DNA of 64,000 nucleotides from Hysterangium stoloniferum (taxonomy: Eukaryota > Basidiomycota > Agaricomycetes > Hysterangiales > Hysterangiaceae): positions 558,001-622,000 of the forward strand of contig WHVD01000019.1 in assembly GCA_015178975.1 (NCBI GenBank), given 5' to 3'. The stretch's first letter is position 1. Each line of letters starts with the position of its first letter. Below are positions 40,040-62,490 of the stretch, piece after piece. Both the position numbers and the translations under genes were made by a program. The notes under the pieces were generated by a model. The model was not told the origin of the DNA and did not search any database. It worked only from the letters and a program-made list of their open reading frames with translations.

Positions 40040-40124
40040 GGCCGCCTGGCATAATGGCAATGCGTCTGACTACGATGCGCTCTTCGAAATCAGGAGATTG
40101 CAGGTTCGATCCCTGCGGTGGTCA
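40040..40124 (+). tRNA. tRNA-Arg (ACG) with a 13-nt intron
   Basis: The 7-bp acceptor stem is GGCCGCC with GGTGGTC, then discriminator A. The D arm is GCAT/ATGC and the T arm GCAGG-TTCGATC-CCTGC. The anticodon stem TCTGA/TCAGG encloses the loop CTACGAA with anticodon ACG. About 13 extra nt after the base following the anticodon form the expected nuclear tRNA intron. T runs downstream (from 40129) suit RNA polymerase III termination. It lies 285 bp from the divergent P450 start. Confidence 0.9.
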
Positions 40125-44137: not shown

Positions 44138-44167
44138 GAAAGTATTAAAAATAGTATGAGTTGATTT

Positions 44168-44295
44168 TGTTAGTTTGAGTAATGCTAGCAGTGCTTCCCA
44201 GGGTCAGGTGGTGTAATGGTTAACACCCCTGCTATATATGCAGAAGCCCTGGGTTTAATCCCCAGTCTGGCCATTCATTTTCTACACTTTTAACA
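44168..44295 (+). repeat. 5' LTR of the miniature retrotransposon
   Basis: 128 bp, TGTTAG...TTAACA. It carries a tRNA-like unit at 44202-44273 and a T4 run at 44278-44281. It differs from the 3' LTR only at 44256 (T here, C at 44540). Confidence 0.9.
44202..44273 (+). ncRNA. tRNA-like Pol III unit in 5' LTR (B box mutated)
   Basis: The acceptor halves GGTCAGG and TCTGGCC can pair (with G-T pairs), the D stem is GTGT/ACAC and the T stem CTGGG/CCCAG. The A-box-like TGGTGTAATGG is intact. The T loop reads TTTAATC, so the B-box cytosine is lost. T4 at 44278 would terminate Pol III. The anticodon arm is irregular (no T before the putative anticodon), so it is unlikely to be a working tRNA. Confidence 0.75.
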
Positions 44296-44310
44296 GGTTA
44301 TGGGCCCCGC
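44296..44310 (+). other. Primer-binding site, initiator-tRNA anticodon-arm type
   Basis: GGTTATGGGCCCCGC sits directly after the LTR. Its first 12 bases are complementary to GGGCCCATAACC, the anticodon arm of eukaryotic initiator tRNA-Met. Priming from an internal (half-tRNA) initiator fragment is known for Drosophila copia and yeast Ty5. The same 15 bases follow the copia LTR at 55915. Confidence 0.8.
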
Positions 44311-44451
44311 TGTGTGCTATAGGGCATGGTTCCTGTGTGTAGAGTGAACAGCTATATTTGTGTGTGGTATAGTGGACAAGTCTGGACAAAAAGAGCCAGA
44401 GAGGACCTATATCTGCTTATAGTATAGTTGAGTGCTAGCATTAAGGGAGTG

Positions 44452-44579
44452 TGTTAGTTTGAGTAATGCTAGCAGTGCTTCCCAGGGTCAGGTGGTGTAA
44501 TGGTTAACACCCCTGCTATATATGCAGAAGCCCTGGGTTCAATCCCCAGTCTGGCCATTCATTTTCTACACTTTTAACA
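44452..44579 (+). repeat. 3' LTR of the miniature retrotransposon
   Basis: 128 bp, identical to the 5' LTR except at 44540. Preceded by the purine tract AAGGGAGTG and followed by the GATTT duplication. Confidence 0.9.
44486..44557 (+). ncRNA. tRNA-like Pol III unit in 3' LTR (B box intact)
   Basis: As the 5' unit, but with a consensus B box (GGTTCAATCCC). A box TGGTGTAATGG, paired acceptor and T stems, and T4 termination signals at 44562-44565 and again before the LTR end. A Pol III transcript is predicted, not shown. Confidence 0.75.
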
Positions 44580-44799
44580 GATTTATTGTAAAACACAATC
44601 TACAAGGGTTTAAGAGACTTGTAATAGAAGTACTTGTGTGTCAATCAATGTGTCAGTTAATGAATCACCTTTTGACATGATAAATTTGGTGCTAGTTAAG
44701 GTATACATTAGCCTCCAAAAACATGGTCCTCAATTTCCATTTTCATATAAAAAGTTGAAGGAATAGGTGAACCGCCCCTAGGAGAAGGGTGTTTCATCA

Positions 44800-46257: not shown

Positions 46258-48371
46258 AGTGTGGTATAACTTTGCCTTCAAGTTTGCACGAATATACCTT
46301 ATCATTGACTCTGATTTCAGTTGTATAAAGTAGTGGCCCTTCGTCTAACTCAGCTCCCCACACGCCAGTACCTTTCAGATACCCGTTTTATATATGAAAG
46401 CGTTTATTAAAGTATCCAAATTTATCGAACAAGCTTCTCAAAGTTCGTCAGAATGTTCATCTAGAGCCTCTATAAATCGGTCTTTTCTGCGACATGATAT
46501 GAGTCCACCTGATATGAACCCGACTACACCGTGGATGTTATGAAGGAAACGTGTCTGAGGGTTGGACAATATGTTTTGAGGGCGGATAATCTAGAACTGT
46601 CAGTTTTATAGTAAAATAACTCGGGTCGATAATTGGGGAAGACATTGGTGTTGGATGTAAAGAAAGAATGTCACAGCTGGCCACGCTGCCGGTTAAACAG
46701 TCTGGGGATCAAGGGGTCCGCAAACTTGACGGAATTCGAACTCTTCGAAACACTTATGCGGTATCCATGCTTAGGCTTACAAGTATGGGAGTTTGAATTG
46801 TAGATCGGATAAATGTAAAATATGTAGTACCTGTTATAATATTGTAGCTTTGCGGGGTTTCCGACCCCCTCTTTGTGTTAAATTTGATGATGAAACACAC
46901 CTTTTTATAGGGGGAGTCCACCAATTATTGCAACTTTTCATATGAAGATGCTAATTGTGGACCATGCATTTGGAGGTTAATGTGTGTCAGAACCACTATA
47001 CACCTCCCAGAGCATCCAACCTATATTGTCAGGAGGTGCTACACTAACTGACACAAGATATTGAGACACAAAGTACTTTTATTACAAGCTTATTAAACCC
47101 TTGTATATTGTGTATTGCAATAGAGTCAACTCATACTATTTTTAATACTTTGCTGCCACGCGGTGCTGACTAGCCTATTGTTCCCACATAGGCTACATCT
47201 AAGTAGCATGCCTTCATGTGCATACATACTCGCTCGCTGCATGTGGCAGAGAAGGGTCAGGCAGAAGTGACACGCGATTTTTCTTGATACTATTATGAGT
47301 TTCAATATTTGATTTCAACAATACTGGTTGTGTGATTACTTTTTATGGTGTGCATACTGCGTCTACGGTTACGATACTGGGATTAGTTATTACTGAGCAC
47401 AAATAATCCATTCAAAGCACTGTGTAGGATGAGAGTAAGGCATCAGGTTTATGTAAAAGTTCTTACTGTAAGTGTATCGTCTTATATTGCTTTTAATCAC
47501 CAAGCGGCTTATAGCTAGTATCTGGTTGTATTATTGGGTTGAATACGGTGAAAGCTCCGATGTGAAGCTGTCCAATAGTTGACTCATTTCGGTAGTATTA
47601 TACTATTGGACACGGGTATATCTCGGAGGCTAATGGGCGGCTAGGTGGGCAAGAATGAAAATACCGATGGAACCGCACAATCAATAAGTTTGAGAGCTTC
47701 AAAGGAATCCCTTCCTTGTGTGTAAATTTTCAAAAAATCCTGCACGGTGCTCGGCTCGGCCTCAGACCGGGAGGTGGGCCAAGCTGGGCCTTGGGGGCGG
47801 CTTTGGCCCAGCTTGCAATTCTGAAAAACCAAAGCGCGCTAAATATTCCAGATTTATGTAACAAAAGGCCAGTGTAAAGAAATGTAACTCCTGAACTGTG
47901 ATTTGGTAACGATCGGTCACACGCAAGGCTGAACCTGCACACAACCCGCACACGCGGACCCCCACTGGCCCCCACCACTAACCCTACCTGCCGGCGTCCG
48001 GGCAGGTCCCAGTCTGACAATAGATAGCTGGTTACTTGTTCTTCTCATAACGCCTGAATTGCGGGCGTGCCAAACAGAAAAATTCGAAAAAACCCTGGAT
48101 TTTAACTATACAATATCAACCGTGTATGCAATACTGATAGGCATTGTATCTAGACGACACAGAAGAAAATTGCTACTGAAACAGAAGAGAAAATGGAAGG
48201 AAACACTGAAACCACAACAATGAACCCTAAACAAACCTAGAATGGGTGGATACCTGGTAAACGTATACGGAAAAGCACCTTATATATTGTTCGAAATTTT
48301 GCCTTGGGCCAATCGAGTTAAGTGAATGGCAGGCGATCGGAGACGATGCACTGAATGGATGCTCTAATAAC
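46258..48371. other. Intergenic region with repeat fragments
   Basis: No gene recognised. It contains the minus-strand repeat at 46990-47155 and a GC-rich stretch at 47740-48020 with a hairpin (CAAGCTGGGCC and its inverse around 47777-47815). Confidence 0.4.
46990..47155 (-). repeat. Empty-site relative of the miniature-element target
   Basis: Reverse complement reads AGTATTAAAAATAGTATGAG, then TTGACTCTATTGCAATAC without interruption, where 44160-44590 has TTGATTT[insert]GATTTATTGTAAAAC. It therefore shows the pre-insertion state. Confidence 0.7.
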
Positions 48372-55563: not shown

Positions 55564-55914
55564 TGTTAGATAAACACCATAAAAACTCCACAAACGACAT
55601 AAACAATAGCAAGACTACAGTTATAGGACAAAGGATTAAGGACACACAAAGGAATTGATCATTCCTTTTGTGCCACTATTTCTTTTGTCCGCGTTATATC
55701 TATTGTTCATAAAAACATATATAAACCATACATCTATCATAGCTACACCTCAGTCCATTATACTATACTATGAGACTGAGGTGAGCTATCTTACACTATA
55801 TCTTCTAACCTATTATTGATCACATATGTATCAGATATATATTAGGTATATAATATTATAGTCCGTTATACTATACTATGAGACTGAGATATATATTAGG
55901 GTTACCTTTTTACA
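55564..55914 (+). repeat. copia 5' LTR
   Basis: TGTTAGATAAAC...TTTTTACA. A segment GTTATACTATACTA (with a shared GAGACTGAG tail) occurs twice, about 107 bp apart, possibly a duplicated promoter or regulatory block. Confidence 0.9.
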
Positions 55915-55930
55915 GGTTATGGGCCCCGCC
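55915..55930 (+). other. copia primer-binding site (initiator-tRNA half-molecule type)
   Basis: GGTTATGGGCCCCGCC follows the LTR directly. It is complementary to the initiator tRNA-Met anticodon arm, as in Drosophila copia and Ty5. Its first 15 bases equal the site of the miniature element at 44296. Confidence 0.8.
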
Positions 55931-55990
55931 TTGTCTGTATAAGCCTACTATACATTGCGATGACTTAGACTGTGACCCTTTATACACATC

Positions 55991-56819
55991 ATGGCCACCT
56001 CCACGACAGCTTCTGCAGATGACATTGCACCCTCTATCACCACTCTCCACACCAACCTTGTCTACTCCGGCCCTAAACTAGATAAACTTCAATCTAACTA
56101 TCAGCCATGGCTTCGTGCCGCCACATTATTTCTAACATTAACTGGCTTCTATGGCTATGTCAAGGGTACAATTCCTCAGCCAGGACCTGAACACCCTCGT
56201 GCTCGAGCCAATTGGGAAGGCAACAGTTCCCTTGCAGCAGCCCTCATTGCTTCCACCATTGAGCCAGTGGAATGGGAGTATATTGACCTGGACCTTGGAG
56301 TGAAGGCTTGGTGGGATGCCCTACTAACCCGCCACAAAAGCGAGGGGCCCATCCGTCAAGTTCAACTGCTCCAAACTGCACTCCTTACCCAATTTTCATG
56401 CAGTGCCTCACTGCCCACAACAGCCGAAACAATTTGTACCACAGTTGACCGTGCCTTTGACATGGGTGGGTGACATTTCATGGGACCTGTTCAAGTGCAT
56501 TGCCCTCCTTAATGCTTTGGGCACTGAATTTCAACACTTATGCTCCATTATTACCCATGACATTTCCCAGTCCACAAAAACTAAACCATTCACTTCCACT
56601 CAGTTGTGCTCATATTTAGACAGCGAGCAAGCCCTGATGAATTCTGACACCACCAAGCATTCCACAAATGCTACTTCCATTGCTCTAACCGCTACCCCTA
56701 AATCTACCAGCCCTCCTGTGTGCTCTAATTGCAAAAAGCAATGCCACACTGCTGAATACTGTATTGCACCAGGGGGTGGGCTGGCGGGCAAAACGATTGA
56801 GGAGTCTAAGCTTACTTGA
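55991..56819 (+). pseudogene. gag: copia gag
   Basis: Starts MATSTTASADDIAPS. The capsid-like part has NYQPWLRAATLFLTLTGFYGY and KAWWDALLTRHKSEGP, typical of copia gag in fungi. A frame change near 56465 is needed to reach the zinc knuckle CSNCKKQCHTAEYC (C-x2-C-x4-H-x4-C, with Cys replacing the usual Gly before His). Confidence 0.8.
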
Positions 56820-56906
56820 CAATGATATAAAGAAGCCAAGCAATTAAAAGCTCTTACTTCTGTTCCTAGTGTCATCCCTGTTGCTAAACCGAAGATCCCT
56901 GTCCAT

Positions 56907-58270
56907 GTGCAGGGAGCTGATGGTCGCCTCTACATAGTACAAATGGACCCTTCTGAGCTATCTTCTGCAGATTCCACACCAATGAATTTTGCAGGTGTTG
57001 CATCACCATCCCCCGATGTGCCGTCACTCCCTCTTGCACTGGAGAATGTTGAGTATGATGGCTGGCTTGTACTTGAGGAGGAGTTAAAAACTACAATTGA
57101 TTGGAACAAACACAGCCAATCACCTCCTACTGCTTTAAGTACATCTATTGTCCAACCATTATCACAAACAAAGCGCACCACAATATCTACTGAAACTCAC
57201 CCATTTTGGCTTGATACTGGTGGGTGCCACCATACACATCTCACCAGAACGAGCAGATTTTCTCACCTTAAAGACTGTCAACCCCCATTCTGTGAAAGGA
57301 CTGGGGGGCTCTTCCATTTGGGCAATTGGTATTGGAGACATCACAATACGTATAGGATGGGGAACTCATATCACTCTTCAAAATGTGCTTTATATTCCAG
57401 ATGCAGTTGTATGCCTGATCTCTGTTCGATGCCTTATGAAGGATTCTGGAATTGTCGCACATTTTGATGACCAATCTTGTTGGCTAAGCACCAAGTCATC
57501 TAATTCCATTATAGCTCGTGGTTCACTACTTCCATGCAAGAATTTCTATTTGTTAACACTGCAATCTACCCAAGCTGAACATGCTCTCATCTCTACAAGT
57601 GCACCTACAATTGAAACTTGGCACTGCCGTCTTGGACATGCAAACTATAAATCCATCAGCGATATGATCAGCAATGGTCTAATCAAAGGTGTGCCATCTC
57701 TTGCAACCTTTCCTTCCAAAGTGTGATTCATGTATTCTTGGAAGAGACCAAATCACCTGTTCCAAAAATTCGTCAGGAAGGAATGGGATACAAAGTGACA
57801 AGGAAACTTGAGAAAGTATGGGTGGATTTAACAGGACCAGAAGCCATCACATCTCATACTGGCAATAATTACATCATGAACATAGTCGATGATTATACAA
57901 ATTTTGTTTGGACTGTGGCATTAAAAAACAAAAGTGATGCATTCCTACAACTCAAAATTTGGGAGCAAGCCAGAGAAATTGAAACGGGACTCCAAGTTGG
58001 AATTTATCGCACAGATAATGGTGAACTAAAAAGCCATGAAATGTCTGATTGGTTGGCATCCCGAGGTACTCAGCAACAATTTACGGCACCCTACACATCT
58101 GCACATATTGGACGAGTTGAATGCATGCATAGAACACTTATGGGAAAGGCACACTCAATGTGAATCTACGCTAAATTACCAGCATACCTATGGGATGAAT
58201 TTTACCTGACAGCAACTCATTTACATATCAAAACGACCACAGCTTCCCTCAATGGCATAACTCCATGGGA
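56907..58270 (+). pseudogene. pol: copia protease, pre-integrase and integrase
   Basis: The protease start is PFWLDTG with a frameshift directly after it. The pre-integrase block reads ETWHCRLGHANYKSI. The integrase core has VWVDLTGPEA (first Asp), YRTDNGELKS (second Asp) and RVECMHRTLMGKA (Glu). A stop follows near 58163, and GITPWELWYGRPP-like sequence continues. Confidence 0.8.
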
Positions 58271-58304
58271 ACTTTGGTATGGCCGACCTCCTGATTATTC
58301 TTAC

Positions 58305-60541
58305 ATGCGAGAGATCGGATGCCACACTTTTGTCCTCATTCAAAACAAAGCAAATCCTAAGATCTATGAATGTTCAATTGAATGCATACTTATTGGCTAT
58401 GATGCAAACTCTAAGACTTATCGTTGCTATGATCCAAAAACACGGCAAATCTATAGTTCATATCATATTCAATTTCTGGAGAGCCACGATGGACATCCAC
58501 AGACTATGGAAACTACAGTTAAATCCAATGATACTTCCACCATATTGAAACCACCTTCATCTGATGTATATTCTCCCAATTCACCCACTGAAGTCCCTGT
58601 TGAATCTCCCAGAATATTACCCCAGTATAGCCAGCCATCCATTCCAGTCCCTTTAGACGGTCCACAATCCCATTGACATTCTAGTCGCATAACTGCTGGA
58701 CAGCCAGTTTCAAACACAAGGCTAGAACGAGCTGTTCAGGAGTCTAAGGATAGTGCAGAGTGGCTGCTGTTGCAGAAGCAGGAACATTTGCGTATGATTG
58801 CAGAACTGCATGATACCATTACAGACTCCCCGTCCCCAACACCAAGACATGATGAATTACACCAAGTCCTTTCTTCTATCCATTCTACCTTGAACTTATT
58901 AGACACAGACATATCCTTGGCAGCTTTCTCCGACACTCTAGGGGTTGACCCATTGACATGTAACGATGAACCACAAACATGGGCTGAAGCTCTCCAATCT
59001 GGTGATGCCTCACAATGGCGAACTGGATTCCAAGATGAACTAGACTCTCTTAAGGCAATGGGGGTCTACAAACTTGTTCCCCGATCTGAAGTTCCTCAGG
59101 GATGTAAAGTACGTAAGGGATGGCCTGTCTTCCAAATAAAATGAGATGAGGCCAGTAAAGCCATTCGATGGAAGGTCTGTTTGGTCTTCAAGGGTTTTGA
59201 ACAAATTTATGGTAAGGATTATCATAAAACAATCTCACCTACAGCACACATGGAATCTTGGCATATTCTGCTCCATATCACTGCCACCCTTGGCTGGGAT
59301 GCACAACAGATCGACATTAAAACTGCTTTCTTTATGGCTTACTTCCTGAAGATGAAGTACAATACATGGAACAACCAGACGGCTTTATTGAACCAGGCAA
59401 GGAAGACTACGTATGGATGATCCTCAGGGGTCTATACGGGATGAAACAAAGTGGATGGATCTGGAACAAAACTATGAATGAGCAGATGCTAGAATGGGGC
59501 TTCACCAGACTCACGTCGGAATCTTGCATTTATTACAGATGCACAACAACTGGCATTGTTATCGCTGCTGTACACGTTGATGATTTCCTTTCTATTGCGA
59601 GTACAGCTGTTGAAAATGAAGCTTTTAAACAGCAAATGCATTGCGTATGGGCAATCTCTGACCTTGGAACTGCCCATTTTGTTGTTGGCATTGCCATCAA
59701 ATGGGACCGGCCAAATAACTCCATCTCTCTGTCTCAAACAGCACTCATCGACAAAATCATACATCAATTTGGACAGAGCACTGCCTCTACAGTGTCTACC
59801 ACCTTTGATCATAGTCTCAAACTTCGATGATTTGACTGCTCTTCCTTATCCAAACTTGAACTTACTGATCTGCTCAAACTACCATATCATTCCTTGGTTG
59901 GCTGCCTACTTTACCTTGCCATATCTACTCGTCCTGATATCTCCTATGCTGTTCAACAACTGTCTCAATACCTTGACAGTTATTCCACTTTACACTGGAC
60001 TGCGGCCATCTGGGTTGTTCGCTACCTAAAGGGTACTAGGGACCTTAAATTGTACTTGGGTTGCTCCAGTGGCCTTTGTCTCACTGGTTATACTGATTCC
60101 AATTGGGCTAACTGTCTTGATACATGTCGCAGTATTAGTGGTTTTGCTTTCACCTTGGGCTCTGGTGTTATCTCATGGGGGACAAAGAAACAAAAAACGG
60201 TGGCAGCCTCGTCTTGTGAGGCTGAATATGTCGCTGCATTTGAAACAGTTAAGGAAGGGACGTGGATCCATACATTACTTGAGGGTATTTCTTTTCCCTG
60301 TGCCACTTCAACAACTATCCTTTGCAATAATAATGCCGCAATTGCTTTATCAGAGGACCCGCTACTTCATGCATGAGTCAAACATATTGACATTAAATAC
60401 CATTTCCTTCGTGAATGCATCCATGCGGGTGACTTCGACATTAAATATATTAACACTAAGGATAACCTTTCCGACATATTCACCAAACCTCTCGAATCTC
60501 CACACTTTATACGTCTCCGTGGTTTCCTGGGATTACACTAG
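58305..60541 (+). pseudogene. pol: copia reverse transcriptase and RNase H
   Basis: WAEALQSGDASQW and the copia-type block GWDAQQIDIKTAF precede PDGFIEPGKEDYVW, LRGLYGMKQSGWIWN and the active-site HVDDF (YVDD in most relatives). RNase H has YTDSNWANCLDT, SSCEAEYVA and DIKYHFLRE, and ends at 60541 (RGFLGLH). Stops or shifts occur near 58676, 59144, 59420, 59830 and 60376. Confidence 0.85.
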
Positions 60542-60564
60542 CCAGACTTCCATGTGAGGAGGAG

Positions 60565-60916
60565 TGTTAGATAAACACCATAAAAACTCCACAAATGACA
60601 TAAACAATAGCAAGACTACAGTTATTAGGACAAAGGATTAAGGATGCACAAAGGAATTGATCATTCCTTTTGTGCCACTATTTCTTTTGTCTGCATTATA
60701 TCTATTGTTCATAAAAACATATATAAACCATACATCTATCATAGCTACACCTCAGTCCGTTATACTATACTACAAGACTGAGGTGAGCTATCTTGCACTA
60801 TATCTTCTAACCTATTATTGATCACATATGTATCAGATATATATTAGGTATATAATATTATAGTCCGTTATACTATACTACGAGACTGAGATATATATTA
60901 GGGTTACCTTTTTACA
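60565..60916 (+). repeat. copia 3' LTR
   Basis: 352 bp. Compared with the 5' LTR it shows 10 substitutions, all transitions, and one 1-bp indel. Confidence 0.9.
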
Positions 60917-62371: not shown

Positions 62372-62380
62372 CCTACCCAA

Positions 62381-62453
62381 GGTCAGATGGTGTAGTGGTT
62401 AACATCTTTGTTATGTAATTGAGAGATCCTGGGTTCAATCCCCAGTCTGGCTA
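62381..62453 (+). ncRNA. tRNA-like Pol III unit in the family F LTR
   Basis: Acceptor halves GGTCAGA/TCTGGCT pair, A box TGGTGTAGTGG, T stem CTGGG/CCCAG, consensus B box GGTTCAATCCC, then T4 at 62458-62461. The anticodon arm is poorly paired, so it is tRNA-derived rather than a normal tRNA gene. Confidence 0.7.
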
Positions 62454-62490
62454 TTCATTTTCTACATTACTTATGTTTTCTAACACTATG

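What the first reader, a model, noticed from the sequence alone, without database searches (positions are those of the whole stretch)
44168..44579. A 412-bp LTR retrotransposon whose LTRs are built around a tRNA-like Pol III gene
Two 128-bp LTRs (TGTTAG...TTAACA), an exact GATTT duplication, a primer-binding site directly after the first LTR and a purine tract before the second define a complete TRIM. Each LTR holds a 72-nt tRNA-like fold with A box, B box and a T4 terminator within 5 nt of its end. Plant Cassandra TRIMs carry 5S RNA in their LTRs; a tRNA-type unit in a basidiomycete TRIM would be the analogous case. Whether this exact element is already described I cannot tell.
Basis: partly seen in the sequence, partly recalled or inferred. 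Interest (0 to 1): 0.9.

Follow-up and report, generated by a model that had tools for sequence, protein, structure and literature searches.

The report
tRNA-promoter mini LTR retrotransposon (Helenus)
This is a real 412-base jumping element that carries a tRNA-like unit in each of its end repeats, but the class (Helenus) was described in fungi in 2024, so it is a new member of a known kind.

Summary
Window 44168-44579 is a complete TRIM: two 128-bp LTRs with one difference, GATTT duplications, a primer-binding site (PBS), a short purine tract and a 72-nt tRNA-like unit in each LTR. A paralogue of the target without the insertion lies in the same window. Only the 3' LTR unit passes ARAGORN and Rfam; the 5' one has C to T in its B box.

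At up to 3 mismatches the host genome holds 80 LTR/PBS junctions and 296 LTR ends. Of 20 LTRs sampled as solo, 18 have exact 5-bp duplications.

Structure, duplications and primer type match Helenus (Kojima 2024, PMC10886601), known above all from rust fungi and thought to be moved by Copia. The 15-nt PBS is the exact complement of host initiator tRNA-Met nucleotides 25-39, a half-tRNA primer. Copias with the same PBS, some with long open frames, share the genome. A sister family has a PBS for the 3' end of the same tRNA.

Most likely Pol III transcribes it and Copia proteins copy it; transcription is inferred. I could not check whether this exact family is catalogued, nor name the host.

The parts
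44163..44167 (.). left target-site duplication GATTT
44168..44295 (+). 5' LTR, 128 bp, TGTTAG...TTAACA
44202..44273 (+). tRNA-like unit of the 5' LTR; not called by ARAGORN or Rfam; carries the B-box change
44209..44219 (+). A-box-like TGGTGTAATGG, 5' LTR
   Evidence: LTR position 42; the box name is recalled and used in PMC10886601
44252..44261 (+). B-box-like GGTTTAATCC, 5' LTR, C to T at 44256
44278..44281 (+). TTTT, possible Pol III terminator, 5' LTR (a second TTTT at 44288-44291)
44296..44310 (+). primer-binding site GGTTATGGGCCCCGC, exact complement of host initiator tRNA-Met nt 25-39
   Evidence: with iMet genes
44296..44451 (+). 156-bp internal region
44443..44449 (+). short purine tract AAGGGAG, then TG, before the 3' LTR
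44452..44579 (+). 3' LTR, 128 bp
44486..44557 (+). tRNA-like unit of the 3' LTR, called tRNA-Ile(TAT); Rfam 46.8 bits
44536..44545 (+). B-box-like GGTTCAATCC, 3' LTR
   Evidence: LTR position 85
44562..44565 (+). TTTT after the 3' LTR unit (a second at 44572-44575)
44580..44584 (.). right target-site duplication GATTT
46885..47151 (-). paralogue of the target sequence without the insertion (natural empty site), about 75% identical
55564..60916 (+). Copia LTR retrotransposon, LTRs 55564-55914 and 60565-60916, TSD CATGT, same 15-nt PBS at 55915; coding region in several frames; a relative of the likely kind of helper
62373..62466 (+). LTR fragment of the sister family (Helenus B here): tRNA-like unit and terminator

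Best explanation
[quoted passage not shown] Shown here: paired LTRs, 5-bp target duplication, a PBS for half of initiator tRNA-Met, a tRNA-like unit in the LTRs of the copies read, solo LTRs, LTR-sharing tandems, and Copias with the same PBS, three with a long open polyprotein frame. Inferred: TFIIIC and Pol III use the A and B boxes of the 5' LTR unit, start near its 5' end, often read through the short TTTT runs, cross the 156-bp interior and stop at TTTT in the 3' LTR. The tRNA-like unit would then be the R repeat at both RNA ends. A 5' half of initiator tRNA-Met, ending at nucleotide 39, primes minus-strand synthesis; the new strand jumps between the two R copies; Copia reverse transcriptase and integrase supplied in trans finish and insert the DNA.
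For: Structure and duplications. Empty site. Family size. PBS: 15 of 15 nt complementary to iMet nt 25-39, the same in the window Copia. GGTTATGGGCCC occurs 1104 times in the genome against 3 for the pattern read backwards; only 19 extend to the 13-mer with the further iMet-type base, so most sites are PBS-like rather than iMet genes. Eight open frames behind such PBS sites were scanned: L048, L055 and L058 have 1416-1434 aa with gag, integrase and RVT_2 domains; L049 and L066 have RVT_2 over the cut-off. Between the two families the T arm with B box is 17/17 and the A-box core 10/11 identical, against 11-12/22 in the anticodon arm. Only 34 bp of LTR lie upstream of the unit, which seems short for a Pol II promoter (inference). 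Of the 100 LTRs listed of 390 (both families), 71 have TTTT after the unit and none has 5 or more T.
Against: No RNA evidence. Within the family the tRNA-like part is not clearly protected: in 42 LTR copies, positions 1-34 and 35-91 both have about 0.5 substitutions per site once two subfamily positions (7 and 27) are left out, by hand from the table, and indels are commoner in the unit (0.61 per site) than before it (0.15), mostly in the anticodon arm. Between families the acceptor strands are nearly as conserved (13 of 15) as the boxes, and part of the interior is 88% alike, so conservation does not single out the promoter boxes. Absence of TTTT between the units is not significant (39% of dinucleotide shuffles have none in both families). 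Twenty of the 100 listed LTRs have TTAT and nine have other changes instead of the first TTTT. No Copia in the loci held shares the interior beyond the PBS, so no specific helper is identified; RVT_2 was below the cut-off in L054 and L061 and absent from the L057 frame scanned. Rfam at its cut-off calls no tRNA in L059, a copy of this family. Some host tRNA genes also have T4 as first run: one of two iMet genes (L043) and the Cys, Val and Thr genes of L019, L021 and L026, so T4 need not be leaky.
Confidence: 0.75

Rival explanations
1. A Helenus-type TRIM moved by Copia, but its genomic RNA is made by Pol II (from flanking or cryptic promoters); the tRNA-like unit is a passenger or makes only short Pol III RNAs that end at the first TTTT.
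For: TTTT begins at the fifth base after each unit and could stop Pol III at once. Some host tRNA genes, including one of two iMet genes and those in L019, L021 and L026, have T4 as first run. Conservation within the family does not single out the unit.
Against: Only 34 bp of LTR lie upstream of the unit. The A and B box regions stay alike between two families whose anticodon arms differ, though the acceptor strands do too.
Confidence: 0.2
2. A SINE or dispersed tRNA pseudogene that only looks like an LTR element.
For: tRNA-like part and short size.
Against: Paired LTRs; exact 5-bp duplications in 6 of 8 elements read at both ends and 18 of 20 LTRs sampled as solo; PBS directly after the LTR; no A-rich tail in the sequence.
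Confidence: 0.02
3. The unit is a working host tRNA gene spread by the element.
For: ARAGORN calls tRNA-Ile(TAT) and the acceptor and T stems pair.
Against: The base before the anticodon is A, not the near-universal U33 (recalled rule). The anticodon call differs among copies: TAT, TGT, and ATA with a supposed intron in L059.
Confidence: 0.03

Closest known systems
Helenus (Kojima 2024, PMC10886601; abstract, introduction, methods, results, discussion, legends and tables read; supplement not read)
   Same: TRIM with a tRNA-derived unit in the LTRs; PBS and PPT; 5-bp TSD in fungi; PBS on the anticodon part of tRNA-iMet as the commonest fungal type, iMet 3' end in others; Copia linked; several families per genome; solo LTRs; tandem arrays (reported there for a zebrafish family).
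   Different: Nothing categorical. The unit is called tRNA-Ile(TAT), a type not in the paper's Table 2; whether this family is in its supplement is unknown.
Cassandra (plant TRIM with 5S rRNA in the LTR; as described in PMC10886601; tandem arrays from a title in the listing)
   Same: Pol III gene-derived unit in each LTR, non-autonomous, tandem arrays.
   Different: 5S instead of tRNA; per PMC10886601 its RNA runs from 5S to 5S with an 18-bp repeat and it is known from land plants.
Ajax (PMC10886601)
   Same: TRIM with a Pol III gene-derived unit, 5-bp TSD.
   Different: Partial 5S unit, nemertean worms, tRNA-Leu primer.
Copia elements with an anticodon-part tRNA primer (Drosophila copia and yeast Ty5 as cited in PMC10886601)
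   Same: PBS for the anticodon part of a tRNA; the 3' end at nt 39 of iMet equals the Drosophila copia case as I recall it.
   Different: They encode proteins; no tRNA was called in the LTRs of the host Copias read (the calls in L062 lie in the nested sister element).

Membership tests
Helenus | TRIM-sized element with two LTRs | tested here: met
   412 bp, LTRs 128 bp
Helenus | tRNA-derived sequence inside the LTRs with A and B boxes | tested here: met
   Rfam 46.8 bits and ARAGORN in LTR2; LTR1 B box changed
Helenus | PBS after the 5' LTR and PPT before the 3' LTR | tested here: met
   15-nt iMet PBS; purine tract short, AAGGGAG then TG
Helenus | usual fungal type: PBS on the anticodon part of a tRNA | tested here: met
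   iMet nt 25-39, genes L043 and L044
Helenus | 5-bp TSD in fungi | tested here: met
   6 of 8 elements read at both ends, 18 of 20 LTRs sampled as solo exact
Helenus | PBS shared with Copia in the same genome | tested here: met
   window Copia and L048, L049, L055, L058, L066 with RVT_2 over the cut-off
Helenus | host among the fungi listed by Kojima | not testable with these tools
   genome unnamed; the protein search gave no organism
Helenus | sequence match to a catalogued Helenus family | not testable with these tools
   Repbase and the paper's supplement not available
TRIMp3 | transcription by RNA polymerase III | not testable with these tools
   needs RNA data; PMC10886601 also leaves it unvalidated for Helenus
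Cassandra | 5S rRNA sequence in the LTR | tested here: not met
   the three Rfam matches in the window are all tRNA

The most novel reading that the evidence does not exclude
The LTR is a Pol III start-stop cassette. The tRNA-like unit is itself the R repeat, and a weak T4 terminator, not lengthened in any of the 100 LTRs listed, lets part of the RNA read through the first LTR and end in the second. Shape and pairing of the unit would then be kept for RNA end formation as well as promotion.
Probability: 0.3. Interest if true: 0.5.

Novelty: new member of a known kind. Interest (0 to 1): 0.3.

Why it matters
It agrees with the published Helenus picture and adds detail in one genome: a natural empty site, solo LTRs with duplications, a 15-nt half-tRNA PBS shared with Copias that have long open frames, and two sister families whose PBSs match opposite parts of the same initiator tRNA. 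Many such units could be mis-annotated as tRNA genes. The nearly identical copies give a good substrate for testing whether an LTR element outside plants is really transcribed by Pol III.

Tried and rejected
Selection on the tRNA-like part within the family: not shown. The raw contrast with the upstream part was due to two subfamily positions. The 42 copies were those aligned over the whole LTR, and 20 of them had been picked by an exact 37-nt 3' end, so positions 92-128 could not be used for them and presence of the unit in all 42 is partly a result of the choice.

Avoidance of TTTT between the units: not significant.

A specific Copia helper by shared interior: none in the loci held.

Compensatory pairing in the anticodon arm: the families differ by one base of length there, so I made no count.

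A clean insertion for the sister family in L062: its 5' LTR is truncated, so the match to L063 gives no 5-bp duplication.

Host identity: the protein search and literature terms on assembly size did not name it.

Full report
What is there. Window 44168-44579 is a 412-bp element with two 128-bp LTRs that differ at one base, flanked by GATTT on both sides. Each LTR has a 34-bp lead, a 72-nt tRNA-like unit and a 22-bp tail with two TTTT runs. Both units fold as a cloverleaf. Only the 3' LTR unit is called by ARAGORN and by Rfam (46.8 bits); the 5' LTR has T instead of C inside the B box at 44256. So this copy, though recent by LTR identity, probably has a weakened 5' promoter (inference).

Insertion. 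Joined at the target site with one GATTT, the flanks align with a paralogue at 46885-47151 on the minus strand and with L008 and L047, none of which has an insertion at that point. In L047 the same sequence ends directly before GGTTATGGGCCCCGG, so the target looks like the LTR of another element with an iMet PBS.

Family. In the 111-Mb host assembly the LTR/PBS junction occurs 80 times and a 37-nt LTR end 296 times at up to 3 mismatches, 0 for the patterns read backwards. That leaves roughly 136 LTR ends beyond two per junction, solo or fragmentary. One search listed 43 places that match nearly the whole element at 98-100% and two partial ones; only 40 of 508 candidates were scored. Of 8 distinct elements read at both ends (window, L002, L003, L004, L005, L007, L008, L059), 6 have an exact 5-bp duplication, L008 has a 4-bp one, and L004 has none, with the end of another interior upstream. 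For solo LTRs I took 20 of the 100 places listed, all exact over 37 nt and without a partner: 18 have an exact 5-bp duplication, L090 matches in 4 of 5 and L088 has none. L005 and L006 are one tandem of three LTRs. Six copies fetched because of 2-3 mismatches at the junction (L067-L072) show no normal LTR pair in their 501 bp at the cut-off used.

Primer. The PBS GGTTATGGGCCCCGC is the complement of nucleotides 25-39 of the host initiator tRNA-Met (genes in L043 and L044). A primer ending at nucleotide 39 is the half-tRNA known for Drosophila copia (position recalled; PMC10886601 cites anticodon-loop priming for copia and Ty5). GGTTATGGGCCC occurs 1104 times in the genome against 3 for the control; 19 places have the further iMet-type base, and of 8 such loci read, 2 are iMet genes. 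Nineteen 7.4-kb loci (L047-L066 without L052) hold 20 of the listed sites. In 15 of the 19 loci a repeat ends within 8 nt of the PBS and has a copy downstream; 9 of these 15 are 4.5-6.1 kb in all, and one (L059) is this family. Of 8 open frames scanned, L048, L055 and L058 have 1416-1434 aa (stop to stop) with gag, integrase and RVT_2 domains; L049 and L066 have RVT_2 over the cut-off, L054 and L061 below it, and the L057 frame has a Helitron-like match only. The window has its own Copia in several frames, 55564-60916, with the same PBS and TSD CATGT.

Sister family. L062 holds a related element whose unit is 83% alike and whose interior is 88% alike over 82 bases, but whose PBS is TGGTAGCAACTCCA, the complement of the 3' end of the same iMet with CCA. 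An LTR-end-plus-PBS pattern of this kind occurs 22 times at up to 1 mismatch; membership was read only for L062. The window fragment 62373-62466 belongs to this family by its unit and tail. Between the families the B-box arm is 17/17 and the A-box core 10/11 identical, the acceptor strands 13/15, and the anticodon part 11-12/22. This fits a promoter role but does not single out the boxes, and it is two families, not an independent sample.

Known or new. Kojima 2024 (PMC10886601) defines Helenus by these features: 113 families in Pucciniales, fungal PBS mostly on the anticodon part and most often of iMet, 5-bp TSDs, Copia as the likely helper, and Pol III transcription expected but unproven. 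A library search for Helenus or TRIMp3 with retrotransposon found that paper and one meeting report (listing only). The present element meets each feature that I could test. I could not check its exact family against Repbase or the supplement, nor name the host.

Mechanism. Pol III from the tRNA-like unit with read-through of T4, half-iMet priming and Copia proteins in trans is the reading I favour. The mobility steps are well supported by anatomy; the polymerase and the RNA ends are inference. Tests that could have helped (mutation pattern within the family, absence of TTTT) were inconclusive.

Noticed in passing
G000 C112 about 0.91-1.22 Mb, C68, C410, C526 (among L015-L038): Many clustered tRNA-Lys(CTT)-like genes with introns and mostly T5 terminators; looks like a tRNA-Lys-derived repeat array distinct from Helenus.
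   Followed up: no
G000 C520:241344-241818 and C4:59982-60628: Junctions of this family at a 220-bp period, and iMet-type PBS sites at about 318-bp period: tandem arrays of shortened or other small LTR elements.
   Followed up: no
listing; C16:166028-166617, C25:178243-178458, C57:845549-845855: A subfamily has TTAT in place of the first TTTT (20 of 100 listed); some elements carry LTRs of both kinds, suggesting recombination or mixed templates.
   Followed up: partly
L008:1242-1915: Another copy of the family sits exactly at the end of the same target sequence that the window copy interrupts.
   Followed up: partly
window 40040-40124: tRNA gene called tRNA-Val(TAC) by ARAGORN, Rfam 49.6 bits, 85 bases long, apparently an ordinary host tRNA gene.
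   Followed up: no
L051, L053: Short (about 1.1 kb) elements with 136- and 185-bp LTRs and the iMet PBS but no tRNA call: candidate ordinary non-autonomous elements.
   Followed up: no
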